A DNA stretch of 47,711 nucleotides from an uncultured Bacteroidales bacterium (lineage in GTDB: Bacteria; Bacteroidota; Bacteroidia; Bacteroidales; UBA932), in contig ONII01000014.1 of assembly GCA_900317845.1 (NCBI GenBank), positions 1 through 47,711 on the forward strand, given 5' to 3'. Made by a program: the position numbers and the translations under genes. Positions within the stretch are counted from its first letter, which is position 1; each line of letters begins with the position of its first letter. Below the pieces are notes generated by a model that saw nothing but the letters and a program-made list of their open reading frames with translations, was not told the DNA's origin and ran no database searches. This document shows, piece by piece, positions 1,268-47,711 of this stretch.

Positions 1268-2634
1268 AGGCCGTATTTTTTCAGCTTTGCGTACATCGTC
1301 GGCCGGCTGATCCCCAGCATCTTTGCGGCCACGGAGATGTTTCCATTGCTTCGCTCCATGGCGTCCCGCACCAAGCGTTCCTCCTCCTGCGCGTTGTGAA
1401 GGAGATTCCCGGTCAGGCCGGGAATGACGCCACCCGTCATGCCCGACTCCGATCGGGCATCTAAATCCTTTGATGTAAGGACATTCCCCTCCGAGAGAAT
1501 GACAGCCTTTTCTATTACATTCTGCAGCTCGCGGATATTGCCGCTCCAGTGGCTGCCTTCCAGCACCGCCTTGGCAGAATCGTCTAGCCCCGTTAAGGGA
1601 CGATGGTATTTTTCGGCGAAGCCTTCCAGAAATCGTTGCGACAGCGGAACGATGTCTTCCTTGCGTTCACGCAGCGCCGGCAGATGGATGTGGACCGTAT
1701 TGATGCGGTAATACAAATCCTCGCGGAAACGCCCTTCCCGCACCAGCTGCTCCAGGTCCATATTGGTGGCGCAGATGAGCCGGATATCCACAGGAATAGC
1801 CTTGGAGCCGCCAACGCGCACCACACTGCGGTTCTGAATCACGCGCAGCAGCTTTGCCTGCAGGTGCAGGGGAATATTGCCGATTTCGTCCAGGAACAGC
1901 GTTCCGCCATCGGCCTGCTCGAACTTGCCCACGTGGTCTGTATGAGCGTCCGTGAACGCGCCTTTTACGTGACCGAAAAGTTCGCTCTCGAATAGCGTTT
2001 CGGTGATGGCGCCCGCATCTACGGCAACCATAGGCTTTTCACTCCGGAGGCTGTGGGCGTGGATTTCACGGGCCAGCACATCCTTGCCGGTACCGTTCTC
2101 GCCGGTAATCAGCACAGTGGCATCCGTGGGCGCAATCTTGTCCAGGGTCTTCCGGATGGCCGCCATCGGCCTGGAGGTGCCCCAGAACATCGGGCTGTCT
2201 GCCGTCATGGCCTGCTCCGACTGGGCATCACGCTTCATCGCCTTCCTGGCCTTATCCCGGGCTGCAGTGAGCGTTGCCACGAGTTTGTCGTTGTCCCACG
2301 GCTTCACAATAAAGTCAAACGCGCCGCGTTTCATGCCCTCCACCGCCAAGGCAATATCGGCATAAGCCGTGAACAGAACCACTTCCACTTCCGGAAACAT
2401 CTTTTTGATTTCCCCGGCCCAGTAGAGGCCCTCGTTGCCCGTATTGATGCTGGTGTTGAAGTTCATATCCAGCAGCACCACATCCGGCCGGAAGCGCTCC
2501 AGCGTACTCACCAGCGTCACAGGCGAAGGCAGCGTTTCCACCTCGCTGAAATGCATGGGCAGGAGGATCTTCAACGCCTGGCGAATTCCGGCGTTGTCGT
2601 CCACAATCAGTATCTTTCCTTTCTTCGATGTCAT
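1264..2634 (-). CDS. sigma-54-dependent response regulator (AtoC/NtrC/ZraR type)
   Basis: The 456 residues hold three domains. The receiver (1-125) has phospho-acceptor D56 and acidic pair D12/D13. The AAA+ sigma-54 activator domain (about 145-375) has Walker A GENGTGKD, the sigma-54 contact loop as GAFTDA (a variant of GAFTGA), and Walker [12 protein letters not shown]. The C-terminal Fis-type helix-turn-helix is [21 protein letters not shown]. It is the first gene of a regulator-kinase operon. Between the AAA+ and HTH domains, residues 392-411 are encoded by two head-to-head copies of a dispersed palindromic element, extending the linker without breaking the frame. Likely binding sites are the TGTAAAG/CTTTACA inverted repeats upstream of itself and of the tolC gene, which suggests autoregulation plus control of efflux. 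The signal is unknown. Confidence 0.93.
1403..1428 (-). repeat. palindromic element copy 1 (inside the response regulator gene)
   Basis: Read on the minus strand it begins GTCATTCCCGG and ends CCGGGAATCT, with an 8-bp perfect stem (ATTCCCGG/CCGGGAAT). It is in frame with the host gene and encodes VIPGLTGNL at residues 403-411. Confidence 0.8.
1436..1462 (+). repeat. palindromic element copy 2 (inside the response regulator gene)
   Basis: It begins GTCATGCCCGA and ends TCGGGCATCT, with an 8-bp stem (ATGCCCGA/TCGGGCAT). It lies 7 nt from copy 1 in opposite orientation. On the gene's strand it encodes DARSESGMT (residues 392-400). Confidence 0.8.
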
Positions 2635-2676
2635 CGTTTACAAGCCAAATTTAGTCAATTATTCCCGCACTCGCAA

Positions 2677-2692
2677 TACAAGCGCCGTGCCG
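2677..2692 (-). promoter_or_regulatory. sigma-54-like promoter of the response regulator/kinase operon
   Basis: On the minus strand the site reads CGGCACGGCGCTTGTA. GG at -24 and TTG at -12 match the consensus and the spacing is correct, but the canonical -12 GC is GT. It lies about 43 nt before the regulator ATG and about 57 nt from an inverted-repeat site, much like the arrangement in front of the tolC gene. Confidence 0.5.
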
Positions 2693-2747
2693 CAGAATGT
2701 ATCTTCCTGATAATCAGGTGATTCGGCTTTGAATCGGAAATATAAGT

Positions 2748-2786
2748 GTGTAAAGTTGCATTTACAACTGTAACGCTTCTTTACAC
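2748..2786. promoter_or_regulatory. TGTAAAG/CTTTACA inverted-repeat cluster upstream of the regulator
   Basis: GTGTAAAG (2748-2755) and CTTTACAC (2779-2786) form an outer inverted repeat. Inside, TGTAAA (2749-2754) pairs with TTTACA (2761-2766). The words are the same as those in the 328-359 repeat, so it is probably a binding site for the same regulator. Confidence 0.55.
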
Positions 2787-2826
2787 TTCGCCGGGAGAAA
2801 GGCCTGCCCACAATCCCTCTTCCTCC

Positions 2827-2867
2827 GGGATTCCGGCTTCGCCGGCATCCCTCCCGCCTGCGGCGGG
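2827..2867. repeat. two adjacent GC-rich palindromes in the spacer
   Basis: The first (2827-2851) has arms GGGAT and ATCCC around an inner CCGGC/GCCGG stem. The second (2853-2867) is CCCGCC-TGC-GGCGGG. They resemble REP-type repeats but lack the GTCAT...ATC ends of the coding-sequence elements. The rest of the 2635-2880 spacer holds only the regulator promoter region. Confidence 0.6.
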
Positions 2868-2880
2868 CTATGCAAAGCGC

Positions 2881-2925
2881 CAACAAAAAACCGCGTTCAA
2901 GCAAGCTTGACGCGGTTTTTTGTTG
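2881..2925 (-). terminator. rho-independent terminator after tRNA-Ser
   Basis: A long near-perfect stem runs from CAACAAAAAACCGCGTTCAA to GACGCGGTTTTTTGTTG, with a GCGG core followed by six T on either strand. It lies 9 nt past the tRNA-Ser 3' end and would work in both directions. Confidence 0.85.
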
Positions 2926-2933
2926 CCACTTTG

Positions 2934-3018
2934 CGGAGGAAGAGGGATTCGAACCCCCGGTGCCTTGCAGCACAACAGTTTTCAAGACTGCCGCCATCGA
3001 CCACTCGGCCATTCCTCC
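2934..3018 (-). tRNA. tRNA-Ser (anticodon TGA)
   Basis: The 85-nt minus-strand gene has acceptor stem GGAGGAA/TTCCTCC, D-arm GGCCGAGTGGTCGATGGC, anticodon loop CTTGAAA (anticodon TGA), a long class II variable arm, and a T-arm with GGTTCGAATCC. CCA is not encoded. It reads UCA-type serine codons. It follows lspA by 27 nt but has its own promoter. Confidence 0.95.
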
Positions 3019-3029
3019 AAAAGGGATTG

Positions 3030-3059
3030 CAAAGGTAGTAAAAAATTATTCCTTTGCAA
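3030..3059 (-). promoter_or_regulatory. Bacteroidota-type promoter of tRNA-Ser
   Basis: On the minus strand TTG (3057-3059) is followed by 19 nt and then TACCTTTG (3030-3037), the -33/-7 arrangement of Bacteroidota. It overlaps the 3' end of lspA. Confidence 0.75.
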
Positions 3060-3639
3060 AGAACTTCCAGTGAAAGAGAATCAGATAGATAGCGCCCACG
3101 GTGACGCAACTGTCTGCAAAGTTGAACACCGGTTCAAAGAAAATGTCTCCGCCAACAAGGGGTACCCAGGACGGCCAGGTCCAGAGCGGGAAATAAAACA
3201 TATCCACCACCTTGCCCTGCATAAAAGGAGCGTAAGAGCCCAGCGTAGCCACCGTATCATAGGTGGACTCGCTGAAGATAAGCCCATAGCAAAGGCAGTC
3301 CACAATATTGCCGAACGCACCGGCCGTGATAAGCGTAAGGCCCACCAGGACGCCCATGGGGACGTTACCCCGCCGGAGCAGTTTGGCAATCCACCAGCAC
3401 AGCACCCCGAAGAGCACCACACGGAACGCGGTGAGCAGGTACTTCCCCACTACCCCGCCGAACGCCATGCCAAAAGCCATGCCCTTGTTCTCTACAAAGA
3501 GCAGTTGGAACCAGTTTCCCAGCACCGGAATGCTTTCCCCGAGCGTCATGTTCGTCTTGACCAGGACCTTGATGACCTGGTCAATCACGACCAACACTAC
3601 GCCCACAAGGAGTAAAGACTTCCCCTTAGACCACTTCAT
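3046..3639 (-). CDS. lspA: lipoprotein signal peptidase (signal peptidase II)
   Basis: This inner-membrane aspartyl protease removes signal peptides from diacylglyceryl-modified prolipoproteins. The 197-residue protein has four predicted membrane helices. The catalytic dyad is visible as D114 in GNIVDCLCYG and D176 in FNFADSCVTVG; the stretch between them is longer than in Proteobacteria, as is usual in Bacteroidota. It is the last gene of ileS-dksA-lspA, a gene order I recognise from Bacteroidales genomes, and starts 6 nt after the dksA-like stop. Its substrates would include lipoproteins such as the 8751-9863 product, with Lnt (44278-45873) acting next. Confidence 0.95.
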   Translation of the reverse strand: MKWSKGKSLLLVGVVLVVIDQVIKVLVKTNMTLGESIPVLGNWFQLLFVENKGMAFGMAFGGVVGKYLLTAFRVVLFGVLCWWIAKLLRRGNVPMGVLVGLTLITAGAFGNIVDCLCYGLIFSESTYDTVATLGSYAPFMQGKVVDMFYFPLWTWPSWVPLVGGDIFFEPVFNFADSCVTVGAIYLILFHWKFFAKE

Positions 3640-3645
3640 AAGGAA

Positions 3646-4047
3646 CTACTTACGACCGGTCTTTTCAAGGATAGCTTTTCCTTCTACTGTGGTGGTGGCA
3701 TGCGGAACCAGACGCAGGCGCTCCTTGGGAATGAGTTTCCCGGTGACGCGGCAAATGCCGTAGGTCTTGTTCTCAATGCGCACCAGGGCAGCTTCCAGAT
3801 TCTGGATAAACTTGTACTGACGCTGGGCCAGGGCGCCGGCTTCCTCCTTGGACAGCTGGAAAGCACCGTCGTCCTCTACCGTCTTGAAGGTAGGGGCGGT
3901 GTCCAGGATGTCGTTGCCGCCGGCGTGGGTCATTGCCTCCCGCAGGGTATTGTACTCCGCACGGGCCTTGTCCAACATCTCGTTGATAATGCCGCGGAAC
4001 TCTTCCAGTTCCTCGTCAGAATAGCGGGTTTTGTTGAGCTCTTCCAT
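3646..4047 (-). CDS. DksA/TraR-family protein
   Basis: The 133-residue protein has an acidic coiled-coil N-terminal region and a C-terminal zinc-finger-like domain ending KLIPKERLRLVPHATT. DksA proteins bind in the RNA polymerase secondary channel and tune the ppGpp response. Only one cysteine (C99 in YGICRVTGK) remains of the four zinc ligands of classical DksA, so this version probably does not bind zinc; from memory this is common in Bacteroidota. It lies between ileS and lspA with 6-nt spacers, indicating one operon. Confidence 0.88.
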   Translation of the reverse strand: MEELNKTRYSDEELEEFRGIINEMLDKARAEYNTLREAMTHAGGNDILDTAPTFKTVEDDGAFQLSKEEAGALAQRQYKFIQNLEAALVRIENKTYGICRVTGKLIPKERLRLVPHATTTVEGKAILEKTGRK

Positions 4048-4053
4048 ATCTTG

Positions 4054-7000
4054 TTATCGTTTTACTATCAGTTTAATACTCCCTTCCGTCCATTCTACCT
4101 CCGTAGCCCCCGCAGGTGCTTCTGCAAAAGGATGCAGGCCGATAGAAAGAGACAGTGTCTGTGCCTTCACATAGGCCCCGAAGGCGGATAGGGCATCTTG
4201 CAAATCCGGATCGTCCGCATAAACTTCCGTGTCGATACGGTCCGTCACCTCAAAACCGGAGCTCTTGCGCAGGTTCTGGATGCGGTTGACCAGCTCGCGG
4301 GCCAGGCCCTCCCGGCGCAGTTCCGGCGTCACTTCAATATCCAGCGCCACGGTAAGGGCACCTTCCGAGGCCACCAGCCAGCCGGGCATATCCTCCGAGG
4401 AGATGGCATAGTCACCGGGCGAGAGGACCACTTCTCCGCCGGGCAGTGCCAGCGTGTAGCTCTGCCCTGCTCCCTCCGCCTTTTGGATGGCGGCAATCAC
4501 GGGCTGCTCCAGCGTACCAAACGCGGCGGCGATTTCCTTCATGCGGGCGCCGTAGGTTTTGCCCAGCACCTTGAAGTTGGGCTTGATGCGCAGGGTCATA
4601 ATACCGGTGGTGTCTGCAATGAATTCCATTTCCTTTACGTTCACCTCCGACAGGATAATCTCCTTCACGGCCTCCAGGCAGGCACGAACCTTCTCCGAAA
4701 TCACGGGAATCATCACCTTCTGCAGGGGCTGACGCACCGGAATATTCACCTTCTTGCGAAGGGCCAGCACCAGCGAGGTAGCCTGCTGTGCCAGGGCCAT
4801 ACGCTCTTCCAGCTCTGTGTCGATCACGGCGGCGTTTACCTCCGGCATGAGGACAAAGTGGACAGATTCTTCGCTGCGCTCAGAATGACAGGTTAAATCC
4901 AGGTACAACTGGTCCATGAAGAACGGGGCGATGGGGGCGCCCAGGATGGAAACGGTCTTAAGCACCTGATACAGCGTTTGATAGGCGGCCTGCTTATCGG
5001 CCGTCATCTCACCCGCCCAGAAACGGGCGCGGTTGAGGCGGACATACCAGTTGGAGACATCGTCACAGACGAAGGTCTCCAGGATACGGCCTGCCGATTT
5101 AACGTCGTAATCCTCATAGGCGGCACGAACGTCCCGGATGACGGAATTGAGCTTGGAAAGGATCCATTTGTCCAGTTCAGAGACCGGAGAAGTTACCTTT
5201 TCCGGCTCCCAGCCATCAATATTGGCATAACGGGCAAAGAAGGCGTAGGTGTTGTACAGCGTGCCAAAGAACTTGCGGCGGACATCGGCCACGCCACTCT
5301 CGTCGAACTTGAGGTTGTCCCAGGGTTCCGCATTGGTGAGCATGTACCAGCGCAGGGCATCGGCCCCATAGGTATCCAGGGCCTTGAACGGATCTACTGC
5401 GTTTCCCAGGCGCTTGCTCATCTTGTTGCCGTTCTTATCCAGCACCAAACCATTGGAAATCACACGTTTAAACGCAGGCGTTCCGGAAATCATGGTGTGG
5501 ATAGCGTGCAGCGTATAGAACCAGCCGCGGGTTTGGTCCACGCCTTCTGCGATAAAGTCGGCCGTGGCGCCGAAAGCGGGCGATTCCAGGTTCCTGAGGC
5601 CTTCCTGGGCATAGGGCATGGCACCGGAGTCAAACCACACGTCAATGAGGTCTGTCTCGCGCACCATCTTTTTGCCGGAAGGGCTCACCAGGTACAGGCT
5701 GTCCACATAGGGCCGATGGAGGTCTATCTTGTTGTAATTCTCCAGGGACATATCGGCAGGGTCAAAGCCCTTTTCCTTGAGCGGATTGGAAGCCATGATG
5801 CCGGCGGCAACCGCTTTTTCTATCTCTGCGTAGAGCTCCTTCAGGGAGCCGATGCACTTTTCCTCCTTGCCGTCTTCCGTGCGCCAGATGGGCAGCGGCG
5901 TGCCCCAGTAGCGGCTGCGGCTCAGGTTCCAGTCCTGGATGTTCTCCAGCCACTGGCCAAAGCGGCCCGTACCGGTGGAAGCGGGTTTCCAGGTGATGGT
6001 CTTGTTCAGGGCCACCATCTCATCCTTCACGGCGCTGGCCTTGATGAACCAGCTGTCCAGCGGGTAGTACAGCACGGGAAGGTCTGTGCGCCAGCTGTGC
6101 GGATAACTGTGCACATGCTTTTGCACCTTGAACGCACGGCCGTCGGCCTTCATCATCACGCAAAGGTCAATATCCAGCGTGCCTTCCTCCTCCACGTGCT
6201 CGAAATATTGCTTATAGCCGGCCTTTACATATCGGCCGGAATATTCCTTATACGACGGATCTACCGTAGCGGCGTAGGCGGGTTCCATGTCTTCCAGGCG
6301 CATGAAGCGGCCCTGACGGTCCACCTGGGCCTGCGGATTGCCGTCCTTGTCCAGCGGCATGATGGCGCCGATGCCGGCAGCCGCAGCCACCCGTTTATCG
6401 TCCGCACCAAACGTAGGGGCGATATGGACGATACCCGTGCCGTCGGAAGTGGTTACGTAGTCACCGGAGATAACACGGAAGGCGTCTCCGTCCGGTTTGA
6501 ACCACGGGATGAGCTGATGGTAACGCATGCCAACGAGCTCCGAGCCCTTCCAGCTGCCGCCCAACAGTTTCCAGGGAACCACCTTGTCCCCTGCCTGGAA
6601 GCTTTCCAGCGGAACATTCTCTCCCTTGGGATTGAACCAGGCGCCCACCAGGTCCTTGGCCAGCACATAGATGGCCGGCTGCCCGGAATACGGGTTGAAG
6701 GAAAGCACACGCACATATTCAATCTCCGGGCCCACGCACAGCGCCGTGTTGGACGGAAGCGTCCAGGGCGTAGTGGTCCAGGCCAGGAAATACACCGGGA
6801 AGGCATAGGTACCGAACAGCGGCTGGGAAGCGCCGTCCTTGATAACCTCGAACTGCACCGTAGCGGTGGTGTCGCTCACATCCTTGTAGCAGCCCGGCTG
6901 GTTGAGCTCATGCGAGCTGAGGCCGGTGCCGTCTGTAGGAGAATACGGCTGAATGGTGTAGCCCTTGTAGAGCAGCCCTTTGTCGTAAATTTTCTTCAGG

Positions 7001-7485: not shown

Positions 7486-7503
7486 ATTTTTTATCTAATT
7501 TTG
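7475..7503 (+). promoter_or_regulatory. probable cvpA promoter
   Basis: TTG (7475-7477) is followed by 18 nt and TAATTTTG (7496-7503), about 50 nt before the cvpA ATG. It overlaps the 5' end of ileS and is divergent from the ileS promoter. Confidence 0.5.
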
Positions 7504-7523
7504 CACACGCTTTCTTAAGAGTG

Positions 7524-7553
7524 CAAAGATAAACATTTTAAGTGGGAATAGCA
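7524..7553 (-). promoter_or_regulatory. ileS operon promoter
   Basis: On the minus strand TTG (7551-7553) is followed by 20 nt and TATCTTTG (7524-7531), the Bacteroidota -33/-7 pattern, about 38 nt upstream of the ileS start codon. Confidence 0.7.
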
Positions 7554-7555
7554 AC

Positions 7556-8053
7556 ATGAACACACTGGACATCGTCATCCTTCTGCTCTTTATTCCGGGT
7601 ATCATCCGGGGCATTACCAAAGGCTTTCTGGAACAGGCCATCACCCTGGCCGGCATTGTGCTCAGCGTGTACGTAACGTACCATTTTTCTTCCTACGCCT
7701 GCAACTTCATCCAGAAGTACATCACCGTGTCGGAGACCGTCCTGCACATCCTGGGATTCGCCGCCACGCTCATCGCCGTGCTCATTGTGGTCATCCTTCT
7801 GGCCAAACTCATTACCAAAGCGGTAGAGATGGCCTCTCTGGGGTGGCTCAACCGGGCCTTGGGCTTTATTTTTTCCATCCTGGTCACCACCCTTGTCCTG
7901 GGGCTCATCGCTATTGTTTTTGACACCCTCAACGTCAAGTTTGAGCTGGTAAAAACAAGCATCCTTCAGGATTCCGTGCTGTACGGTCACCTGAAGGACT
8001 TCGGTTACTTTGTATTCCCGTATATGAAACAGCTGCTGAGCCTGGCCTCTTAG
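7556..8053 (+). CDS. CvpA-family membrane protein
   Basis: The 165-residue protein has four predicted membrane helices. The opening is typical of CvpA (LDIVILLLFIPGIIRGITKGF, then a helix with TLAGIVLSVYV). CvpA proteins were first linked to colicin V export and are tied to envelope homeostasis; the exact activity is unsettled. It is transcribed divergently from ileS and converges on tsaB with only 2 nt between stop codons, so transcription from both sides meets here. Confidence 0.85.
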   Translation: MNTLDIVILLLFIPGIIRGITKGFLEQAITLAGIVLSVYVTYHFSSYACNFIQKYITVSETVLHILGFAATLIAVLIVVILLAKLITKAVEMASLGWLNRALGFIFSILVTTLVLGLIAIVFDTLNVKFELVKTSILQDSVLYGHLKDFGYFVFPYMKQLLSLAS

Positions 8054-8055
8054 CC

Positions 8056-8751
8056 TTACCAGAGCTGCTTTTTGGATACCGTGGCCACAAAGTCTTTCAG
8101 GTAGAAAGGCTCAAAGTAGGCCACGTCTTCAAATTTTCCCGCCTGGAAAGCCTCAAAGGCCAGCGGCACCATGTTCCGGGCCAGCGGCTGCGCATCCACA
8201 AAGAGGCCGTCCCCGCCCAGGACCTCCTTGCATTTGAGGGCGCCGTCACCCACAAAAAGGACCTTTCCCCGAGCACGCTGCGCCGCAAAAGAATCCGCCG
8301 TCACCACATGCGCCTCAACGGGCGTAATCCGTTTACCGTCAGGCGTATACACCGCCGTGTACACCTCCATCCTCCGGGCGTCCAGCATAGGGACGATGAA
8401 AGATGGCCCATCGTCATGCCCGGTTCCGACCGGGCATCCCGCCCCTTGCACCAGCACATCCAGCGTTCCCACGGCGAGAAGCGGTATACCGGCGCCGAAA
8501 GCCAGGCCCTTGGCGGTGGAAGCGCCCACGCGAAGGCCGGTATAGGAACCCGGGCCCGCACTCACGCATACCGCGTCGCAGTCCTTCACCGTAACCCCGG
8601 CGGCATCCAGCACCTCTTTCACCAGCGGGGCGGTGAGGGCCGCCTGCTGCCGCGGCTCCGCGCAAACGCGGTCCGCCAAAATACGGCCATCCTCTGCCAG
8701 GCACACGGACAAGGCAGAGGCGGACGTTTCAATGCACAGGATTTTGGCCAT
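8056..8751 (-). CDS. tsaB: tRNA threonylcarbamoyladenosine biosynthesis protein TsaB
   Basis: TsaB is the scaffold partner of TsaD in making t6A37 on tRNAs. The 231-residue ASKHA-fold protein shows the N-terminal LCIETSASALSVCL and the GPGSYTGLRVGAST motif, then a PMLDARRMEVYTA segment. Between VLVQGAG and PSFIVPM, residues from about C106 to D114 are encoded by a palindromic element, lengthening a loop just before the conserved DARR segment. The start ATG overlaps the stop of the upstream lipoprotein gene by one base (TAATG), so they are coupled. Confidence 0.93.
   Translation of the reverse strand: MAKILCIETSASALSVCLAEDGRILADRVCAEPRQQAALTAPLVKEVLDAAGVTVKDCDAVCVSAGPGSYTGLRVGASTAKGLAFGAGIPLLAVGTLDVLVQGAGCPVGTGHDDGPSFIVPMLDARRMEVYTAVYTPDGKRITPVEAHVVTADSFAAQRARGKVLFVGDGALKCKEVLGGDGLFVDAQPLARNMVPLAFEAFQAGKFEDVAYFEPFYLKDFVATVSKKQLW
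8413..8438 (+). repeat. palindromic element copy 4 (inside tsaB)
   Basis: It begins GTCATGCCCGGT and ends ACCGGGCATC, with a 9-bp perfect stem around TCCG. It is in frame on the opposite (gene) strand, encoding part of GCPVGTGHD. A further small palindrome, GATGGCCCATC, abuts it on the left. Confidence 0.8.
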
Positions 8752-10254: not shown

Positions 10255-10257
10255 GCC

Positions 10258-10725: not shown

Positions 10726-10748
10726 ATGTTTTCCTTGTTACTTCGTCA

Positions 10749-10784: not shown

Positions 10785-10796
10785 CTTATGTCTTTG

Positions 10797-26129: not shown

Positions 26130-26156
26130 AGATTCTTCGCTGCGCTCAGAATGACA
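26130..26156 (-). repeat. palindromic element copy 5 (between der and the eptA-like gene)
   Basis: It is identical over 27 bp to the copy inside ileS (4864-4890), with the same ATTCT/AGAAT stem. It sits 3 nt from the stop codon of the upstream transferase gene. Confidence 0.85.
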
Positions 26157-36578: not shown

Positions 36579-36587
36579 TTTTCCATC

Positions 36588-37025: not shown

Positions 37026-37026
37026 A

Positions 37027-38526
37027 TCAGTGAGATTTCTCGACTTCGCTCGAAATGACAGGAGTAGTGCCCGAAACAGCCGTCAGGTCCACATACTTAT
37101 GCTGCACCACGCCCTTCTTGTTCAGTTCCACCACCATGGGCAGTGCCGACAAATCGAAGGTGTCCAGCAGGAGCCGTCCCTGCTCCGGGGCGTCTGTCAT
37201 CAAACCGTCCATATCCACCAGCAGCACGCGGGCACGCCGGTTCTCCGCCACCACCCGCTCTACGGCAGAAAGCATCTCCTGACAAGAGGAGCAATTGGCC
37301 GAATAAAACACCACATACGCCGGCGCCCCCTTGAGTTTCCGCAGCTTAAACTCCCCTGCGCGGCTCCCCGACACAAACAAACCGGGCTTACGGCGCAGCA
37401 CGCCGCTCACGCGAAGATCCGACACCACCGTTCCCACCGGCGTCCGGGAGCAAAGATCCAGCAGCAGTTCCCCGAGCGAGACCACCTGCGCCTGGTCCTC
37501 AGGCGTATCCCACACTTCCGGCAACTGAATGTACTTCTTTACAAACGGCACGGCAGCCTCGCGGAACACCTCCGTTTTCCGGGACGATACATAATACAGC
37601 ATATCGCCCATATGCTGCTTAAAGGCATCCATATTCCCCTCCCCGAACGTGCGGGCGGCCATATAATCGGCCACATCCATCACGTCGGACACCTTCAATG
37701 TATCCCCATAGGCGGCAAACAACTGGTCGAAAGCAGCCATCTGCGACGACTCTCCATAGACAAAGTGTCCGGAGGAAAACTCCCGGTTCAGCAGCAGTTG
37801 CAGCGCCGGCGTATCCAGGCCGCGGCCCAGGATTTCCCCGGAAGGCGACACCAGAAACATGCGCGGCGTCTGCAGCACGCCATACTGGAACTGCCAGCTG
37901 GCCCCGGCCGGCGCCCAAACATGGGTAACGCCGGCAAAACTTGACCGATACGCCTTCCAGGCCTCACCATCCTGCCCCACATAAATGGCATACACCGTCA
38001 CCGGATACTTTCCTTCCTTCACAAACGCCTTGAGCCGGGCCGATTCCACCTTGCAAGTAGAGCAGCCCGTATCATAGAAATAAAGCACCGAATACCCCTC
38101 ACCGGGCACTTTCACATACGAACCATCCGGCGCAAATGTGTTAATAACCGGCGCCTGCATCCCAATAAGCGAAGACTTGTTGAACTCCACGAACACCTTG
38201 GCATTCATCAAGTCCATTTCCTCCGCCATGGCCACCTTGCCGGAAAGGAACCACTCCTGCGCCACGTGCACCGCTACGGCATCGTCCCCCATAATTTTGG
38301 ACTGGAGGTAATGGTCGTAAATCTTGAGTGCCACGTACTGCCGCACCAGCGAATCCTGGCAAGAGGCAATGAGAAAATCACATTCCTTATTCTGGACCGA
38401 TGCCGGCTCCCCGGCCAGCGCCGTGAAATATTCGTCCAGCTTGGCCCCCAGCTCCGGATACGGTTCCTGGGCCAGGACGCCAAGGCTCAAAAGGGCCGAT
38501 AAGAAAAAGAGTATCAGCTTTTTCAT
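37027..38526 (-). CDS. secreted protein with two thioredoxin-fold domains
   Basis: The 499-residue protein has a signal peptide (to about A19). A helical N-terminal domain is followed by a thioredoxin-like domain with CSTC (C155, C158) in YFYDTGCSTCKVES and a PRMFLVSPSGEILGRG strand. A helical linker (about 260-365) leads to a second thioredoxin-like domain with CSSC (C412, C415) in VVFYSANCSSCQEML. It is probably periplasmic or exported thiol-disulfide machinery. The last ten residues (VISSEVEKSH) are encoded by a palindromic element that also supplies the 3' end of the gene. Its ATG overlaps the coaD stop. Confidence 0.82.
   Translation of the reverse strand: MKKLILFFLSALLSLGVLAQEPYPELGAKLDEYFTALAGEPASVQNKECDFLIASCQDSLVRQYVALKIYDHYLQSKIMGDDAVAVHVAQEWFLSGKVAMAEEMDLMNAKVFVEFNKSSLIGMQAPVINTFAPDGSYVKVPGEGYSVLYFYDTGCSTCKVESARLKAFVKEGKYPVTVYAIYVGQDGEAWKAYRSSFAGVTHVWAPAGASWQFQYGVLQTPRMFLVSPSGEILGRGLDTPALQLLLNREFSSGHFVYGESSQMAAFDQLFAAYGDTLKVSDVMDVADYMAARTFGEGNMDAFKQHMGDMLYYVSSRKTEVFREAAVPFVKKYIQLPEVWDTPEDQAQVVSLGELLLDLCSRTPVGTVVSDLRVSGVLRRKPGLFVSGSRAGEFKLRKLKGAPAYVVFYSANCSSCQEMLSAVERVVAENRRARVLLVDMDGLMTDAPEQGRLLLDTFDLSALPMVVELNKKGVVQHKYVDLTAVSGTTPVISSEVEKSH
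37033..37060 (-). repeat. palindromic element copy 6 (3' end of the double-thioredoxin gene)
   Basis: This 28-bp element has ends TGTCATTTC and GAAATCT with an ATTTC/GAAAT stem around GAGCGAAGTCGA. It encodes VISSEVEKS directly before the last codon and stop. Confidence 0.8.
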
Positions 38527-39646: not shown

Positions 39647-39647
39647 G

Positions 39648-42065: not shown

Positions 42066-42158
42066 TTTGTCATACAACCGGGGCACAATGGTCCCGGTCC
42101 CTTATTGGTCAATCTCCATGCCAATCCGGATATTTGGCAGATTTTTAGCGCTAATATT

Positions 42159-42188
42159 TTGATTTGTAAAAAATAAAGCCTAATTTTG
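42159..42188 (+). promoter_or_regulatory. HU gene promoter
   Basis: TTG (42159-42161) is followed by 19 nt and TAATTTTG (42181-42188), a full Bacteroidota -33/-7 match. The A/T-rich leader is about 45 nt and has no Shine-Dalgarno. Confidence 0.75.
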
Positions 42189-42235
42189 CGCTGATTTTCA
42201 GTAGTGAAAACCAAACTAATAAAACTATAAAAACT

Positions 42236-42514
42236 ATGACTAAGGCAGAGATTGTAAACGAAGTCGCCAAAACTACCGGTCTGGAAAAGACGCAGGTTCT
42301 GGCAGTTATTGAAGAATTCACCAATGTGGTAAAGGGTTCCCTGGTAGCAGGCAATCCGGTGTACCTCCGTGGTTTCGGCAGCTTTATCATCAAGCACCGC
42401 GCCCAGAAGGCCGCCCGTAACATCACCCGCAAAACCACCATCACCATCCCTGCACACGACATCCCGGCCTTCAAGCCCGCCAAGAGCTTCGTGAGCGCCG
42501 TTAAAGAGAAATAA
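42236..42514 (+). CDS. HU/IHF-family DNA-binding protein
   Basis: The 92-residue nucleoid protein has TKAEIVNEVAKTTGLEKTQV (dimerisation helices), the RGFGSFIIKHRAQKAARNI beta-arm region and FKPAKSFVSAV at the C-terminus. It binds and bends DNA as a dimer. It is followed by the small basic protein and rng on the same strand. Confidence 0.95.
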   Translation: MTKAEIVNEVAKTTGLEKTQVLAVIEEFTNVVKGSLVAGNPVYLRGFGSFIIKHRAQKAARNITRKTTITIPAHDIPAFKPAKSFVSAVKEK

Positions 42515-42534
42515 ACCATTAACAACCATTCATT

Positions 42535-42624
42535 ATGCCCAACGGTAAAAAGCATAAGAGACACAAGATGGCGACGCACAAGCGTAAGAAGCGTTTGCGC
42601 AAGAACCGCCACAAGAAGAAGTAA
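42535..42624 (+). CDS. 29-residue highly basic protein, ribosomal-protein-like
   Basis: The ATG at 42535 opens a 29-codon frame in which 20 residues are Lys, Arg or His. It starts MPNGKKHKRHKMATHKRKK and ends RLRKNRHKKK. The KM-x-x-HKRKKRLRKNR pattern resembles the AURKAIP1/COX24 (mS38, bS22) class of tiny ribosomal proteins, which is inference. It lies 20 nt after the HU stop and upstream of rng; I recall the same trio in Bacteroidales. Gene finders often miss it because of its size. Confidence 0.75.
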   Translation: MPNGKKHKRHKMATHKRKKRLRKNRHKKK

Positions 42625-42642
42625 GTCTTCTTCCAATTGAAC

Positions 42643-42670
42643 AGGGCTTGCGGAGGGATTCGCGAGCCCT
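42643..42670 (+). promoter_or_regulatory. stem-loop between the small basic gene and rng
   Basis: AGGGCTTGCG (42643-42652) pairs with CGCGAGCCCT (42661-42670), a 10-bp stem with one G-U, across an 8-nt loop. Only a weak TTG follows rather than a T-run, so it may be an attenuator, processing site or RNase E/G feedback element instead of a terminator. Confidence 0.5.
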
Positions 42671-42696
42671 TGTCCTACCAAAACCAACATTTCCAC

Positions 42697-44262
42697 ATGG
42701 AGTCAGAGAAACCGGACAAGGACCTGATTGTTGACGTAAGTTCAACGGAAGTACATATCGCCCTGATGGAAAATCACCGGCTGATAGAGTACAACACGGA
42801 GTCCAGCACTGGGAACAAATTCACCGTGGGAGACGTCCACCTGGGAAAGGTGAAAAAGATTCTCCCCAATCTCAATGCTGCCTTTGTGGACATCGGCGAC
42901 AAAAAAGAAGCCTTCATCCATTATCTGGACCTGGGACTGTACTTCAACGCCTTCGACCAATTTGTCAAGGAGTCCAACAGCAACACGAATCTCAAAGACC
43001 TGTATTCGCGCATTGCCATTGGCACGCCCCTTCCCAAGGAAGGCCACATAGAAGAGTACCTCAAACCCGGCCAGTTAATTGTGGCGCAAATTGTCAAGGA
43101 GCCCATTTCCACAAAGGGATCGCGACTGACTGCGGAAATTTCATTAGCAGGACGCAACATCGTACTTCTCCCCTTCGCAGAAAAAGTGTCCATCTCCCAG
43201 AAGATTGGCTCGAAGGAAGAGAAACGTAGACTGGAGACACTGGTCAGGAGCATTCTCCCCAAGAATTACGGTGCCATCATCCGCACCGCGGCAGAAGGCA
43301 AAAACGCCGCTACGCTGGTGGGAGAAACCGAATCGCTCATTGAAAAATGGGAAAGCTCCTGGAAAAAGATTGCCAAGAACAAGACCGTCCAGCTGCTCTT
43401 TACGGAGTATAGCAAAACAACTACCGTCCTGAGGGACCTCCTCAACGACTCGTTCTCCAACATTTGGATCAACGACCCTCACGTGGCCGAAGAAGCCCGG
43501 AAGTATGTTTCGCTCATTTCTCCGGAACAAGAGAAAATCGTGCACCTGTACGAAGGCAAACAGCCCATCTACGACCACTTTGAGGTTACTAGGCAAATCA
43601 AGGGCTCCTTCGGAAAAGTAGTGCCCATGCGGCAGGGGGCCTATCTGGTAATCGAAACCACCGAAGCGCTGAATGTCATCGACGTAAACAGCGGCATCCG
43701 CACCAAAACGGCCGACCAAGAGGAGAACTCCTTTGAGGTAAACAAGATTGCGGCCGAAGAAATTGCCCGTCAGCTGCGGCTGCGGGATATGGGCGGCATT
43801 GTGATTGTGGACTTCATCGACATGGAGACCAATGAGCACAAGAATGCGCTGTTCAAACTGATGCAGGAGCTTATGGAAGCAGACAGGGCCAAGCACAATG
43901 TGCTGCCGCTCACCAAGTTCGGGCTGATGCAAATCACCCGGCAGCGGATTCGCCCTGTAACGGAAATCAACACCATGGAGCAGTGTCCCGTGTGCCACGG
44001 CACCGGGAAAATCCACTCCAGTGTTGTCATTGACGAAGAAATCGAACGCAAAATCGCTTTCTATGTCATCGAAAAAGGTGTCAGAAGTATTACGCTGAAG
44101 ACCAGCCCCATCCTGGGCGCTTATCTGAAACGCGGTATTTTCAATTCTTTCGTCGCCCGCTGGCGCAAACGCTACAAAGCGAAGATAGAACTGGTAGAAG
44201 TGACGGATTTCTCCGTCCTGCAACATGAAATGTACAATGAGAAAGGAGAGAAGCTCGAGTAA
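42697..44262 (+). CDS. rng: ribonuclease G/E family protein
   Basis: This single-strand endoribonuclease acts in rRNA processing and mRNA decay. The 521 residues include an N-terminal S1 domain (VHLGKVKKILPNLNAAFVDIGDKKEAFIHY), the DNase I-like catalytic region with VIDVNSGIRTK and IVIVDFIDMETNEHK, and the zinc-link motif CPVCHGTGK. There is no long RNase E-type C-terminal scaffold. The ATG at 42697 (MESEKPDKDLIVDVS) is preferred; an in-frame ATG at 42637 would start before the leader stem-loop. Confidence 0.96.
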   Translation: MESEKPDKDLIVDVSSTEVHIALMENHRLIEYNTESSTGNKFTVGDVHLGKVKKILPNLNAAFVDIGDKKEAFIHYLDLGLYFNAFDQFVKESNSNTNLKDLYSRIAIGTPLPKEGHIEEYLKPGQLIVAQIVKEPISTKGSRLTAEISLAGRNIVLLPFAEKVSISQKIGSKEEKRRLETLVRSILPKNYGAIIRTAAEGKNAATLVGETESLIEKWESSWKKIAKNKTVQLLFTEYSKTTTVLRDLLNDSFSNIWINDPHVAEEARKYVSLISPEQEKIVHLYEGKQPIYDHFEVTRQIKGSFGKVVPMRQGAYLVIETTEALNVIDVNSGIRTKTADQEENSFEVNKIAAEEIARQLRLRDMGGIVIVDFIDMETNEHKNALFKLMQELMEADRAKHNVLPLTKFGLMQITRQRIRPVTEINTMEQCPVCHGTGKIHSSVVIDEEIERKIAFYVIEKGVRSITLKTSPILGAYLKRGIFNSFVARWRKRYKAKIELVEVTDFSVLQHEMYNEKGEKLE

Positions 44263-44279
44263 GAGTTTCTCTCTTTTTT
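44246..44279 (+). terminator. terminator overlapping the end of rng
   Basis: GAGAGAA (44246-44252) pairs with TTCTCTC (44267-44273), followed by TTTTTTA; the rng stop codon lies in the loop. The stem is short, so strength is moderate. lnt converges from the other side. Confidence 0.5.
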
Positions 44280-45873
44280 ATTTACGCGGACGGACGAGGG
44301 CCGCAGCGCCTAGAAGGAGGAAGAGGAAAACGGCCACCCGGCCCACCATGTCCCCGAACCGCACAAAGAAGGTCTGCCCCTGCAGCAGTTGCACCTTCCC
44401 TTCCAGCAGGGCCGGCTCCCACCAGGGCGTACGGTCTACGATTTTTCCACAGGGGTCAATAAAGGCGCTTACGCCCGTATTGCCGCAGCGGGCCACCCAT
44501 CGGCGCGTCTCAATGGCCCGTAACCGGCTGTAACTGAGGTGCTGCTTGTACCCGGGCGTATTGCCCCACCAGGCATCGTTGGTAATGACAGCCAAAAGCT
44601 GCGCACCTTTTCGCACATAGCCGGTGCAGAACTCCCCGTACACGGACTCATAGCACACCGCCGTTCCCACGGGCACGCCGCAGGCCGACAGGCAGGCGAT
44701 CTCCTTCTGGCCTACGTCTTTAGCCATGAGCCCACCGCCCAGCCAGTTTTCCAGTGGGATAAACACCTTGGGGTAGGGCGTGAGCTCCGTCCCCACCACC
44801 AGTTTGGATTTGTGGTAAATGCTGTATGCACCGCTCCCATCTGTGCTCAGGGCCGAATTGTGCGCCAGAATCCACAGTTTTTTGCCGCCGCCTACAGGGC
44901 CCATATCATAGGCACAGGCATGGGGCGCTGTCCGGGCAATCACCTGTTCATAGGTGCTGGCGCCAAAAATAACTGCAGCCTTGGGATGCCGCTGCAAAAA
45001 CGTCTGGAAGCGCTGCATGGTCTCATGCTCCCGCACCCTGTCCAGGTACAGGGCCGATGTAAACGTCTCCGGCGCAAGCACCAGCGTGGGTTCATCGTCC
45101 CACTGCGCCTTTTCCAGCAGCCCCAGGAAACGGGCATCCTGCTGCGCCTGCGTGAGGGACTCGAATTTCTCATACGGATCATAATTGGGCTGGCCGATAA
45201 CGACCTTCAAGGGCGTCCCATCCTCCTCAAACTTGAGGCAGGCGCTCCACACCATGGGGCCGAAAAGGACGACAACAGGCATCACGAAGGCCACTACACG
45301 GGCCTTGCCGGTCCAGCGGGCCATGCGGCCGTCGCTCAGGGCCACCATAAGGCCGAAGAGAGATAGGTTGGACGCCCACACCCACAGCGAGCCGCCCAGG
45401 GTGCCCAGCACGGAATACCACTGCACCAGCGAAGTGCTCTCGGCAAACGCATTCCCCATCACCAGCCAGGGCCAGGAAATTTCCGCGGAAGTGAGGTAAA
45501 AGCGCTCCCAGGCCATCCAGGCGGCGGCCAGGTACAGATACGGCAATACGCCACCCACCCGCCGCTTTACCCAGCGGAAACTGCCAAAAATGACGCTCAT
45601 TTGCAGGGCGTTGGCCAGGATAGCAAACACGGCGCCGCCGGCGGTGGCATTCCAAATCCACCAGGTGGTGGCGGCGTTCCACGCGACAAAGCAGCCGTAG
45701 TGCCACCACCAGAAGTGCTTCACTTTGTATTCCGTGGCCAGCCGCTCCAGAATGAGCAGCGGAAGCAGGCCCACAAGGGCTGTCCAGCCACAGTGGGACA
45801 CCAGCCATGGCAGGCTCATCAGCACGGTGAACGCCAGGGCAAGGCTGGCAAATATGCCGGTACGGTTTCGCAT
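44278..45873 (-). CDS. lnt: apolipoprotein N-acyltransferase
   Basis: It adds the third acyl chain to lipoproteins after Lgt and LspA. The 531-residue protein has an N-terminal block of membrane helices and a periplasmic nitrilase-like domain. The triad is E269 (LAPETF), K355 (YHKSKLV) and C407 (VCYESVYG), with a final membrane helix. The ATG at 45873 is preferred over an upstream TTG. A TACCTTTG -7 box (45880-45887) ends 6 nt before the ATG, implying a very short leader. Confidence 0.94.
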   Translation of the reverse strand: MRNRTGIFASLALAFTVLMSLPWLVSHCGWTALVGLLPLLILERLATEYKVKHFWWWHYGCFVAWNAATTWWIWNATAGGAVFAILANALQMSVIFGSFRWVKRRVGGVLPYLYLAAAWMAWERFYLTSAEISWPWLVMGNAFAESTSLVQWYSVLGTLGGSLWVWASNLSLFGLMVALSDGRMARWTGKARVVAFVMPVVVLFGPMVWSACLKFEEDGTPLKVVIGQPNYDPYEKFESLTQAQQDARFLGLLEKAQWDDEPTLVLAPETFTSALYLDRVREHETMQRFQTFLQRHPKAAVIFGASTYEQVIARTAPHACAYDMGPVGGGKKLWILAHNSALSTDGSGAYSIYHKSKLVVGTELTPYPKVFIPLENWLGGGLMAKDVGQKEIACLSACGVPVGTAVCYESVYGEFCTGYVRKGAQLLAVITNDAWWGNTPGYKQHLSYSRLRAIETRRWVARCGNTGVSAFIDPCGKIVDRTPWWEPALLEGKVQLLQGQTFFVRFGDMVGRVAVFLFLLLGAAALVRPRK

Positions 45874-45879
45874 ACTTGG

Positions 45880-45887
45880 CAAAGGTA
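45880..45887 (-). promoter_or_regulatory. -7 box (TACCTTTG) abutting lnt
   Basis: The minus-strand TACCTTTG ends 6 nt before the lnt ATG. The divergent PASTA gene has a related TATCTTCG at 45902-45909. Confidence 0.45.
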
Positions 45888-45931
45888 TGAAGATTTTTTT
45901 GTATCTTCGCAGGGATTAAGCGAAATTTCGT

Positions 45932-46735
45932 ATGGCCCAGAAAAAATCGGAAGAAAAAAATACCGTAGAGAAGAAAGACCGGTGGGTGCTGAAAAACCTC
46001 ATCGGTGCAGTTGCATTTGTGGTTATTCTGCTCATCCTCACCAGTGTAGGGCTCCGTTTGGTCACCCGTCACGGCAAAACCGTTACGGCGCCGGACTTCA
46101 CCAGCCTGAGCATGCAGGAGGCAGAAAACCTGGCCGCGCAGAGTCAAGTTAGCGTAAAGGTGGTAGACTCCGTGTTTGTCCGCCGGCTGCCCGGCGGCGT
46201 GGTGTACAGGCAACAGCCCAAGGCCGGTTCCACCGTAAAAAAGGGCCGCAGCATCTTCCTTACCATCAATTCCGTAGTGCCTCGCAAAGTGGTGATGCCC
46301 AACCTGTACGGCTACTCCATCACAGAGGCTCGTACAGAGCTTAAAAACCGCGGTCTCAACCTGGGCAACATGCGCTATGTGCGGGACATTGCCACCAACA
46401 CCGTGCTGGGCCAGTACTGTGAGGGCAAGGCGGTAAATGCCGGAGACCTGGTTGTGAGCGGCTCTGCCATCGACCTCAAAGTGGGCGTGAACAAAGACGA
46501 TGACGCTACGCTGGTGCCGCGCGTGATTGGCATGAAGTATATCCCCGCCGTAGATGCCCTGCATGGCCACTATCTCAATACCGGGCGTGTCCGTTTTGAC
46601 GAAGGCGTCCGCACCTACGCAGACTCCGTGAACGCCGTTGTGTACAGACAGGAGGCGGAGGGCGAGGAAAAACCGCTGGGCAGCACCGTGAACCTCTACC
46701 TCACGCTGGATCCCCTTAAAGTCCCTGTCCAATGA
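45932..46735 (+). CDS. membrane-anchored PASTA-domain protein
   Basis: The 267-residue protein has a charged cytoplasmic N-terminus, one membrane helix (about 20-42) and three PASTA repeats on the outside (starting near VTAPDFTSLSMQEAENL, VVMPNLYGYSITEARTEL and LVPRVIGMKYIPAVDAL). PASTA domains bind peptidoglycan or beta-lactams in Firmicutes kinases; here there is no kinase domain. It overlaps rluD by 4 nt (ATGA), a pairing I recall from Bacteroidales. Confidence 0.92.
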   Translation: MAQKKSEEKNTVEKKDRWVLKNLIGAVAFVVILLILTSVGLRLVTRHGKTVTAPDFTSLSMQEAENLAAQSQVSVKVVDSVFVRRLPGGVVYRQQPKAGSTVKKGRSIFLTINSVVPRKVVMPNLYGYSITEARTELKNRGLNLGNMRYVRDIATNTVLGQYCEGKAVNAGDLVVSGSAIDLKVGVNKDDDATLVPRVIGMKYIPAVDALHGHYLNTGRVRFDEGVRTYADSVNAVVYRQEAEGEEKPLGSTVNLYLTLDPLKVPVQ

Positions 46736-47711
46736 TAGACGCTCCTGTCACCCCGAGCGAAGTCGAGGAATCGCCCACCACGGACGAAATGTTCGAGCAC
46801 TTCCGCCTTCTGGTAGACAAAGGGCAGGAGCCGCTCCGGATAGACAAATTCATTGCCACCCACCAGGAAGACACTTCCCGCCACCGCGTGCAGCAGGCCA
46901 TCAAGCTGGGCTACGTGCTGGTGAACGACAAAGTGGTAAAAGCCAACTACATTGTGCGCCCGTGCGACGTTGTAAAGTTTGTGATGCCGTACGAGCGCCG
47001 CGGCACGGAGATTCTCCCGGAAAACATTCCCCTGGACATTGTCTATGAAGACAACGACGTGCTGGTGGTGAACAAGCCCGCCGGCATGGTGGTGCATCCC
47101 GGACACGGGAACTACAACGGCACGCTGGTGAACGCCCTCGCCTACTACCTGCATCTGTCTCCGGACGTGGAGGACGAGCGCATGGGCGTGCTGGTACACC
47201 GGATAGACAAAGATACCAGCGGCCTGCTGGTAGTAGCGAAAAACCCGGCGGCGCAGCTCAACCTGGCAGACCAGTTCTTTGTCCATTCGATCGACCGGGT
47301 GTATACGGCCGTGGTGTGGGGCAACATTACGGAAGACGAAGGCACCGTTTCCGGCACCATAGGCCGGGACCCGAACGACCGCCTGCGGTTCCGCGTGTAC
47401 GACGACCCTGACAAGGGGAAATGGGCCGTAACGCACTGGCGGGTGCTGGAGCGTTTTGGCTTTATTACCGTGGTGGAATGCCGCCTGGAAACCGGACGCA
47501 CCCACCAGATTCGCGTACACATGGCCTCCACGGGCCATCCCCTCTTTAACGACGAGCGCTACGGCGGCTCCGAGATTCGCCAGGGCACCATCTATGCCAA
47601 GTATAAGCAGTTTATTCAGAATTGTTTTGCCCTTTGCCCGCGGCAGGCGCTGCATGCCCGCACGCTGGGCTTCACCCACCCCGTTACCGGGCAGCGCCTC
47701 CACTTTGAGGC
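46732..47711 (+). CDS. rluD: RluD-type 23S rRNA pseudouridine synthase (C-terminus beyond the window)
   Basis: The open frame runs to the window edge with 326 complete codons. An S4 RNA-binding domain (about residues 35-85, EPLRIDKFIATHQEDTSRHRVQQAIK) is followed by the RsuA/RluA catalytic domain. The catalytic domain has the Asp-containing HRIDKDTSGLLV and the family motif ETGRTHQIRVHM. It should modify uridines of 23S helix 69 or a similar site. Residues 5-13 (VTPSEVEES) are encoded by a palindromic element placed directly behind the start codon. Confidence 0.93.
   Translation, partial: MIDAPVTPSEVEESPTTDEMFEHFRLLVDKGQEPLRIDKFIATHQEDTSRHRVQQAIKLGYVLVNDKVVKANYIVRPCDVVKFVMPYERRGTEILPENIPLDIVYEDNDVLVVNKPAGMVVHPGHGNYNGTLVNALAYYLHLSPDVEDERMGVLVHRIDKDTSGLLVVAKNPAAQLNLADQFFVHSIDRVYTAVVWGNITEDEGTVSGTIGRDPNDRLRFRVYDDPDKGKWAVTHWRVLERFGFITVVECRLETGRTHQIRVHMASTGHPLFNDERYGGSEIRQGTIYAKYKQFIQNCFALCPRQALHARTLGFTHPVTGQRLHFE
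46746..46772 (+). repeat. palindromic element copy 7 (5' end of rluD)
   Basis: This 27-bp element, TGTCACCCC...GGAATC, shares the GAGCGAAGTCGA core of copy 6. The outer stem is degraded (CC/GG retained, others mismatched). It is in frame from codon 5. Confidence 0.75.

What the first reader, a model, noticed from the sequence alone, without database searches (positions are those of the whole stretch)
1403..46772. A dispersed ~27-bp palindromic element sits in frame inside several core genes
Seven copies share ends 5'-GTCAT...ATC(T)-3' around a stem that differs between copies but stays paired: ATTCCCGG/CCGGGAAT (1403-1428), ATGCCCGA/TCGGGCAT (1436-1462), ATTCT/AGAAT (4864-4890 and 26130-26156), ATGCCCGGT/ACCGGGCAT (8413-8438), ATTTC/GAAAT (37033-37060), and a degraded one at 46746-46772. 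Compensatory changes imply selection on the hairpin. Six copies are within coding sequence without breaking frame, always at loops, linkers or protein ends. This resembles REP/RAYT repeats or Rickettsia palindromic elements that add peptide segments.
Basis: partly seen in the sequence, partly recalled or inferred. Interest (0 to 1): 0.75.

Follow-up and report, generated by a model that had tools for sequence, protein, structure and literature searches.

The report
Mobile hairpins rewriting housekeeping protein loops
Short DNA hairpins that appear to spread around a bacterial genome have landed, in frame, in the same loops of housekeeping proteins in several related species, and nearly the same hairpin sequence turns up in about twenty phylum-level groups of bacteria.

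Summary
The seven elements are real. They match the published CGTC/TGTC-tagged REP superfamily (PMC3733652), which also holds two Rickettsia palindromic elements. Two kinds occur: a GC-rich perfect hairpin (A), and TGTCAT-nnn-GA-[stem-loop]-GA-nnn-ATCT (B), whose stems covary. A 447.7-kb sample of this genome holds about 38 copies (scanner 42, reversed control 1); 26 lie inside predicted genes, nine between genes. In the window, five copies are inside or at the end of a gene, one lies 5' of der, one is at an uncertain N-terminus. A relative 90% identical at DNA level lacks all three copies it could be checked for. Loops of IleRS and TsaB carry different REPs in different close relatives. The exact type-B 26-mer occurs under about 20 phylum-level names; 50 of 50 genomes chosen from that scan carry 1-443 copies. 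The mobilising enzyme is unproven: no Y1 transposase gene examined is flanked on both sides by REPs, and some rich genomes show none. In this genus RAYT-like genes track REP number (21 of 24 against 2 of 14), but independent pairs on the tree are too few for significance. A known kind, in an unusual form.

The parts
1403..1428 (-). type A REP, sense to the gene, in the response-regulator linker (encodes VIPGLTGNL)
   Evidence: residues 403-411, between AAA_lid (to 394) and HTH_8 (from 417)
1436..1462 (+). type A REP, inverted partner of the previous copy 7 bp away (tags facing each other), encodes DARSESGMT
   Evidence: orthologue in L097 has a type-B REP at the corresponding place
1264..2634 (-). 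sigma-54 response regulator gene carrying the REP pair
   Evidence: Pfam Response_reg, Sigma54_activat, HTH_8
4864..4890 (-). type B REP in IleRS loop 2 (encodes CHSERSEES, residues 866-874)
   Evidence: absent in G099 at 90% DNA identity
4054..7485 (-). isoleucyl-tRNA synthetase gene
   Evidence: Pfam tRNA-synt_1, Anticodon_1, DUF5915; the substrate is inferred from recalled family knowledge
8413..8438 (+). type A REP, antisense in the TsaB loop (encodes GCPVGTGHD, residues 105-113)
8056..8751 (-). tsaB gene
   Evidence: TIGR03725
26130..26156 (-). type B REP between an eptA-like gene and der; identical in sequence to the copy at 4864
   Evidence: empty site in G099
37033..37060 (-). type B REP forming the C-terminus of a thioredoxin-like protein (VISSEVEKS then H and stop)
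37027..38526 (-). thioredoxin-like gene ended by the REP
   Evidence: Pfam Thioredoxin_8
46746..46772 (+). diverged type B REP near the start of the plus-strand pseudouridine synthase gene
46732..47709 (+). RluA-family pseudouridine synthase gene, runs off the window; start codon uncertain

Best explanation
These are copies of a CGTC/TGTC-tagged REP family: non-autonomous mobile DNA of about 27 bases whose tagged strand folds into a hairpin. Shown: high copy number, covarying stems with fixed tag and, in type B, fixed tandem GA/GA; patchy presence within the genus; genome-specific dominant variants; empty sites in close relatives; and different REPs at the same loop in different species. Inferred: the hairpin is recognised as single-stranded DNA by an enzyme acting in trans and re-inserted; copies landing in genes survive only when they keep the frame and fall in tolerant places; and the encoded peptides are tolerated rather than useful. 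The enzyme is not identified. A RAYT-like HUH protein family of this genus is the best candidate, at roughly one chance in three.
For: Membership features: (PMC3733652). Copy number and control. Covariation: among 25-mers with the spacing GTCAT-nnn-GA-n7-GA-nnn-ATC and no pairing required, 27 of 33 distinct sequences have fully paired outer triplets (shuffled mean 12, maximum 18 over 1000 shuffles); with an 8-base top 17 of 19 (shuffled mean 4, maximum 12); GA..GA flanks give 294 paired-stem hits against 0 or 1 for each of seven other dinucleotides (many of the 294 come from loci fetched with an exact seed holding GA). Patchy: 39 of 61 genus genomes have a type-B match, 0-79 copies, 0 in control; more than half of the listed hits of G119 are one variant. 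Empty sites: G099 lacks all three of the seven own copies that its aligned 24 kb covers; junctions. Hot spots.
Against: No transposition has been observed. No gene is consistently linked: 0 REPs in 94 kb around 30 Y1 loci (only a few would be expected by chance), 5 REP-like hits in 121 kb around 32 RAYT-like loci, of which two look like chance and three lie about 215, 290 and 690 bp from the gene, on one side only; and high-copy genomes without a Y1 hit, such as G078 with 265 copies. In-gene changes are not clean 27-bp insertions, and loop 1 of IleRS also varies in length without recognisable REPs (G003, G081, G107). A site can be kept between species: the copy after an rbfA-like gene is identical in L193 and own DNA with about 79% identical surroundings. 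Type B is mostly on the sense strand (13 of 15 in genes), which simple random insertion would not give.
Confidence: 0.72

Rival explanations
1. The copies spread without a dedicated transposase: the hairpin provokes template switching or slippage during replication or repair, and existing REPs are overwritten by other REPs through short homology at the shared tag and tail.
For: Truncated tandem copies lie just 5' of full ones in IleRS of G119, G100 and G081; different REP types sit at one site in orthologues (own and L097; TsaB); net replacement rather than addition in genes; genomes rich in REPs without Y1 hits.
Against: New copies at sites that are REP-free in relatives need a source of new insertions: a 47-bp insertion in G100 against three uninterrupted relatives, and the copy before der against G099. 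Fixed tag, tail and GA/GA argue for a protein that reads them.
Confidence: 0.3
2. The hairpins are functional host signals (RNA hairpins, terminators or protein-binding sites) selected at each site.
For: Covarying stems, sense-strand excess for type B, one identical copy kept after an rbfA-like gene in two species.
Against: 26 of 38 copies lie inside predicted genes; sites differ between genomes at 86-90% DNA identity; 22 of 61 genus genomes have no type-B match. The two type-B hairpins folded are no more stable than shuffles by nearest-neighbour energies.
Confidence: 0.06
3. The encoded peptides ([18 protein letters not shown] and the like) are themselves selected.
For: In-frame placement, sense bias, two reading frames used repeatedly.
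Against: The same loop holds antisense type A, sense type A, type B or nothing REP-like in close relatives; intergenic copies exist.
Confidence: 0.04
4. Chance palindromes and codon usage.
For: The loose pattern does contain many chance hits.
Against: Stem-aware control 1 against 42; type-B pattern 0 control hits in 61 genus genomes and in 50 others.
Confidence: 0.01

Closest known systems
CGTC-tagged REPs (Di Nocera, De Gregorio and Rocco 2013, PMC3733652)
   Same: CGTC or TGTC tag, AT as first two stem pairs, 8-9 bp stem with short loop (type A), inverted dimers, copies inside genes including tRNA synthetases, no transposase linked
   Different: Type B has a 5-bp outer stem, tandem GA/GA and a second stem-loop; about two thirds of copies here are inside genes whereas the paper says most REPs are intergenic; type B occurs under about 20 phylum-level names against 5 phyla for CGTC repeats in the paper. 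The paper's figures were not available, so whether it shows a type-B form could not be checked
Rickettsia palindromic elements RPE-4 and RPE-6
   Same: In-frame palindromes in protein genes; placed by PMC3733652 in the CGTC superfamily
   Different: Other phylum; no sequence comparison was made here
GTAG REPs with RAYT/TnpAREP transposases, and REPINs
   Same: Tagged short hairpins, often in inverted pairs; for E. coli a mid-stem mismatch is needed for TnpAREP activity (PMC8266576, passages), and type B here keeps a GA/GA mismatch
   Different: Tag is TGTC/CGTC, not GTAG; RAYT-like genes of this genus are not flanked on both sides by these REPs
TnpA-Y1 subclasses with C-terminal domains (PMC6006769, passages)
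   Same: HUH motif and, in L039 and L041, a Y..NP stretch read by eye; proteins of 311-328 aa with a long C-terminal part
   Different: Subclass not assigned here; that paper says several subclasses with a large C-terminal domain are not associated with REPs

Membership tests
CGTC-tagged REP superfamily | Unpaired CGTC tag (TGTC allowed) at one end | tested here: met
   base before GTC is T in 251 and C in 45 of 313
CGTC-tagged REP superfamily | A and T as first two stem pairs | tested here: met
   Six of seven window copies; 46746 keeps the first pair and has a mismatch at the second. The scan requires it, so is no test
CGTC-tagged REP superfamily | Stem 8-9 bp, loop 4-5 | tested here: inconclusive
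   Stem met by type A (8-9 bp; loops 5-6 in the two folded); type B has 5 bp, GA/GA, then 2 or more bp
CGTC-tagged REP superfamily | Short unpaired tail, mostly CCA | tested here: inconclusive
   Tail here mostly CT: after ATC, T in 270 and C in 35 of 313
CGTC-tagged REP superfamily | Many copies, often inverted dimers | tested here: met
GTAG REP with RAYT (REPtron) | GT[AG]G tag | tested here: not met
   Tag is CGTC/TGTC
GTAG REP with RAYT (REPtron) | RAYT gene flanked by its REPs | tested here: not met
   30 loci; 32 loci; three loci have a REP on one side within 700 bp
RAYT (candidate genes L039, L041) | Y1 HUH domain of REP-associated transposases | tested here: inconclusive
   NF047646 at E 2.1e-11 and 8.9e-9, below the curated cut-off; L040 no match
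Rickettsia palindromic elements | In-frame insertion into protein genes, absent from orthologues | tested here: met
   sequence homology to RPEs not tested

The most novel reading that the evidence does not exclude
One single-stranded DNA hairpin design (TGTCAT-nnn-GA-[GCGNAGC]-GA-nnn-ATCT) is maintained almost letter for letter across many bacterial phyla because a widespread, still unnamed enzyme, in this genus perhaps the RAYT-like family, reads its tag and tandem G.A pairs; it moves often enough to keep rewriting loops of housekeeping proteins such as IleRS and TsaB, making REPs a steady source of new protein sequence.
Probability: 0.28. Interest if true: 0.87.

Novelty: new variant of a known kind. 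Interest (0 to 1): 0.62.

Why it matters
PMC3733652 left open which enzyme moves CGTC REPs and whether they still form. Here are genomes close enough to catch gain and loss, a defined hairpin with fixed and free positions, a candidate enzyme family, and REP-free sister species as controls, so both questions can be tested. It also shows housekeeping proteins tolerating repeated in-frame rewriting of the same loops, and a short sequence kept across about 20 phylum-level groups, which needs an explanation.

Tried and rejected
Loose pattern counts were rejected as a census because the control is biased. Linked transposase: Y1 loci of mostly REP-bearing genomes, RAYT-like loci and recurrent gene families in 149 REP-bearing loci (the 30 commonest shown) gave shared phage structural modules and common families, no partner gene. 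RAYT against REP in the genus: Fisher 1.2e-5 at 3 or more REPs and 0.016 at 10 or more, but only 4 independent pairs on starred branches; at 3 or more REPs 2.4 on average go the same way and 0 the other, at 10 or more 1.3 and 1.0. Counter-examples: G106 has 8 alpha-type genes and no type-B match, G114 has 19 REPs and no hit, G011 has 15 and only distant hits. Alpha and beta-close counts were tallied by hand from a list sorted by E-value and cut at about 4e-11. Nearest-neighbour folding does not show type B as more stable than shuffles. Literal sequence or peptide searches of the paper library found nothing relevant.
Full report
What was checked. All seven elements stand at the stated coordinates. 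Two kinds can be told apart. Type A is a nearly perfect GC-rich hairpin, such as CGTCATGCCCGGCCCCGACCGGGCATCT (copies 1403, 1436, 8413). Type B is TGTCAT-nnn-GA-[top]-GA-nnn-ATCT, such as TGTCATTCTGAGCGCAGCGAAGAATCT (copies 4864 and 26130, identical to each other; 37033; and the diverged 46746). The genome is G000, 2.41 Mb in 39 contigs. Own DNA around one copy is about 79% identical over about 500 bases to a record titled uncultured Bacteroidales (L193), so I take the host to be a member of the Bacteroidales; the tools gave no name.

More than chance. In 447,711 bp (window plus C22:1-280000 and C24:1-120000) a stem-aware scan finds 42 hits against 1 in the reversed sequence and 1 in the complement. 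I judged four of the 42 to be chance by eye (C22 55515, 61804, 232101, 260358), leaving 38. The type-B pattern GTCATNNNGAGCGNAGN{6,9}ATC has 47 matches in the whole genome and none in the control. The earlier loose pattern overstates the number, because the listed matches of the same pattern in G012 are almost all chance.

Where they lie. Of the 38, 26 are inside predicted genes or form a C-terminus, 2 overlap a gene end, 9 are intergenic and 1 (window 46746) is uncertain (genes were called by my own hexamer-based script, coding fraction 0.89 to 0.95). Of 15 sampled host proteins outside the window 13 have a Pfam match, among them RlmN, an ABC ATPase, two NRPS, an alanine-racemase-like protein, altronate dehydratase and an FHA protein. 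By comparing with the Pfam ranges by hand, 15 of 26 copies fall outside the domain ranges shown (linkers or ends; one response-regulator copy overlaps a domain edge by 3 residues), 8 inside and 3 in proteins without a match. Pfam output gives only the best stretch of each family, so some of the 15 could lie in a second, unlisted stretch. In genes type B is sense in 13 of 15 and type A in 5 of 11.

Hairpin evidence. Requiring only spacing and GTCAT, GA, GA and ATC, with no pairing, the outer triplets pair fully in 27 of 33 distinct 25-mers (shuffled mean 12, maximum 18) and in 17 of 19 distinct 26-mers (mean 4, maximum 12) (the shuffles do not keep relatedness). The tops vary with matching ends: GCGNAGC, ACGAAGT and ACGCAGT, GCCGAAGGC, GGACGCAGTCC, GGCCGTTGGCC and more. 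Forms with a doubled module, GA-G-GA-GCGAAGC-GA-C-GA, also occur. For the 7-base tops alone, 13 of 17 distinct sequences have a closing 2-bp stem against a shuffled mean of 9.6, maximum 15, which is weak. GA flanks give 294 paired-stem hits, seven other dinucleotides 0 or 1 each; many of the 294 come from loci fetched with an exact seed that holds GA. From memory, not from a call: d(GCGNAGC) mini-hairpins and tandem G.A pairs are known as unusually stable in DNA, which would suit a single-stranded DNA substrate. Standard folding parameters do not show this.

Insertions, not conserved segments. In IleRS the element sits in a loop whose length varies among relatives, and no other full genus sequence has it. 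Over 42 IleRS genes of the genus, scanner hits of the REP kind lie in two loops of five genomes: G000 (loop 2, B), G100 (loops 1 and 2, B), G119 (loop 1, B), G116 (loop 1, A antisense), G081 (loop 2, A); two further scanner hits, in G008 and G015, lie elsewhere and look like chance. At DNA level G116 and G090 carry what look like decayed remnants in loop 2, and G119, G100 and G081 show truncated copies directly 5' of a full one; G003, G081 and G107 have longer loop-1 inserts without a recognisable REP. In TsaB the same loop holds type A antisense (G000, G116), type A sense (G081), a decayed type B (G100), a longer type-B-like hairpin (G119), unrelated GC-rich sequence (G099) or nothing REP-like (G090, G003 and more distant members). 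G099 is 90% identical over 24 kb and lacks all three of the seven own copies that it covers. Of 16 REPs found in six relatives within stretches alignable to the window (two REPs of G099 were not in such stretches), one search places 4 at an own REP site and 12 at sites empty in own; one of those 12 (G081 16995) is in fact in the same TsaB loop. Junctions: in G100 a 47-bp segment centred on a type-B REP interrupts a site that is uninterrupted in own, G099 and G081; the copy before der stands where G099 has a short spacer. Inside genes the net change is smaller than 27 bp: +3 to 4 residues in IleRS against most genus members (+1 against L076) and +2 to 3 in TsaB. In the response regulator, the orthologue in L097 has a type-B REP at the place corresponding to the own type-A pair, with no net length change of that linker by my reading of the alignment; this could be an old site in which one REP replaced another.

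Spread. In the genus 39 of 61 genomes have type-B matches, 0 to 79 copies each. All 50 genomes taken from these carry 1 to 443 copies, control 0. These 50 were chosen because they hold the sequence, so the figure says nothing about how common it is. Thirty stretches of viral contigs hold the 25-mer too.

Which enzyme. PMC3733652 (abstract, passages and the section on genome distribution read) says CGTC REPs are not associated with a transposase. I agree so far. Y1_Tnp is found in 25 of 40 genomes (35 REP-bearing from other groups, of which 13 have no hit, and 5 of the genus), and no REP lies in 94 kb around 30 such loci, where by density only a few would be expected. Around 32 RAYT-like loci there are 5 REP-like hits in 121 kb: two look like chance, and three lie about 215 (L248), 290 (L260) and 690 bp (L241) from the gene, each on one side only. 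In the genus, RAYT-like genes (alpha, like L039 and L041; beta, like L040) occur in 24 of 38 genomes; REP count is 3 or more in 21 of those 24 and in 2 of the 14 without (Fisher 1.2e-5; at 10 or more REPs 14 of 24 against 2 of 14, 0.016) (hand tally). On an IleRS tree of 37 genomes only 4 independent pairs on well-supported branches differ in RAYT: at 3 or more REPs 2.4 on average go the same way and none the other, at 10 or more 1.3 and 1.0; 4 pairs cannot reach significance. L039 and L041 match NF047646, REP-associated tyrosine transposase, at 2.1e-11 and 8.9e-9, below its cut-off. General richness in mobile elements was not controlled.

Compared with what is known. The elements meet most defining features of CGTC REPs that could be tested. 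PMC3733652 already reports REPs inside genes, among them tRNA synthetases, and different REPs at about the same site of recB in two Xanthomonas, so neither intragenic placement nor a hot spot is new in kind. New here, as far as searches of the held library show: the type-B form with fixed tandem GA, its near-identity over about 20 phylum-level names, a majority of copies inside genes, and the turnover in IleRS and TsaB. The figures of PMC3733652 are not held, so its family consensus sequences were not seen. Of PMC6006769 and PMC8266576 I saw the starts of abstracts in a listing and passages; of PMC12306157, PMC4666352 and PMC5317091 likewise.

Verdict. A REP family of known kind in an unusual form; mobility well supported by comparison, the enzyme open.

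Noticed in passing
own genome sample, and loci L009-L038, L092-L210: Close inverted pairs tend to face opposite ways: in the own sample 5 of 5 have tags inward, while genome-collection loci have 55 with tags outward and 20 inward, viral loci 17 and 3. Outside the sample own C29:51340/51393 is one pair with tags outward.
   Followed up: partly
L021:9402-9748; L157:3533-3621: Type-B copies in direct repeats about every 30 to 33 bases, almost CRISPR-like in spacing.
   Followed up: no
L055:2227-2251 (G000 C22:262227) and L193:4229-4253: An identical type-B copy supplies the TAG stop of an rbfA-like gene (name recalled, not searched) in two species with about 79% identical surroundings.
   Followed up: partly
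L097:2764-2789: A type-B copy coincides without a gap with the AVILSE stretch of the response regulator, as if native sequence had drifted or been converted into a REP.
   Followed up: no
L012, L015, L017, L019, L022, L027, L028, L030, L035, L038 and others: A related group of phage contigs shares a gene module (structural by look, not searched) with type-B copies in or near its gaps.
   Followed up: no
G106: Eight alpha RAYT-like genes but no type-B match; another REP type may belong to them.
   Followed up: no
window 8056-8751: tsaB lies on the same strand as ileS in G000, G099, G100, G081 and G090 but on the opposite strand in G119, G116 and G003, so it seems inverted within the clade.
   Followed up: no
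window 2204-2229: A possible decayed type-A copy in the response regulator gene; not found by the stricter scan.
   Followed up: no
H1-H3: Plasmids of Calothrix sp. PCC 7716 (two) and Granulicella tundricola carry 24-27 base exact matches to the type-B query, possible carriers between species.
   Followed up: no
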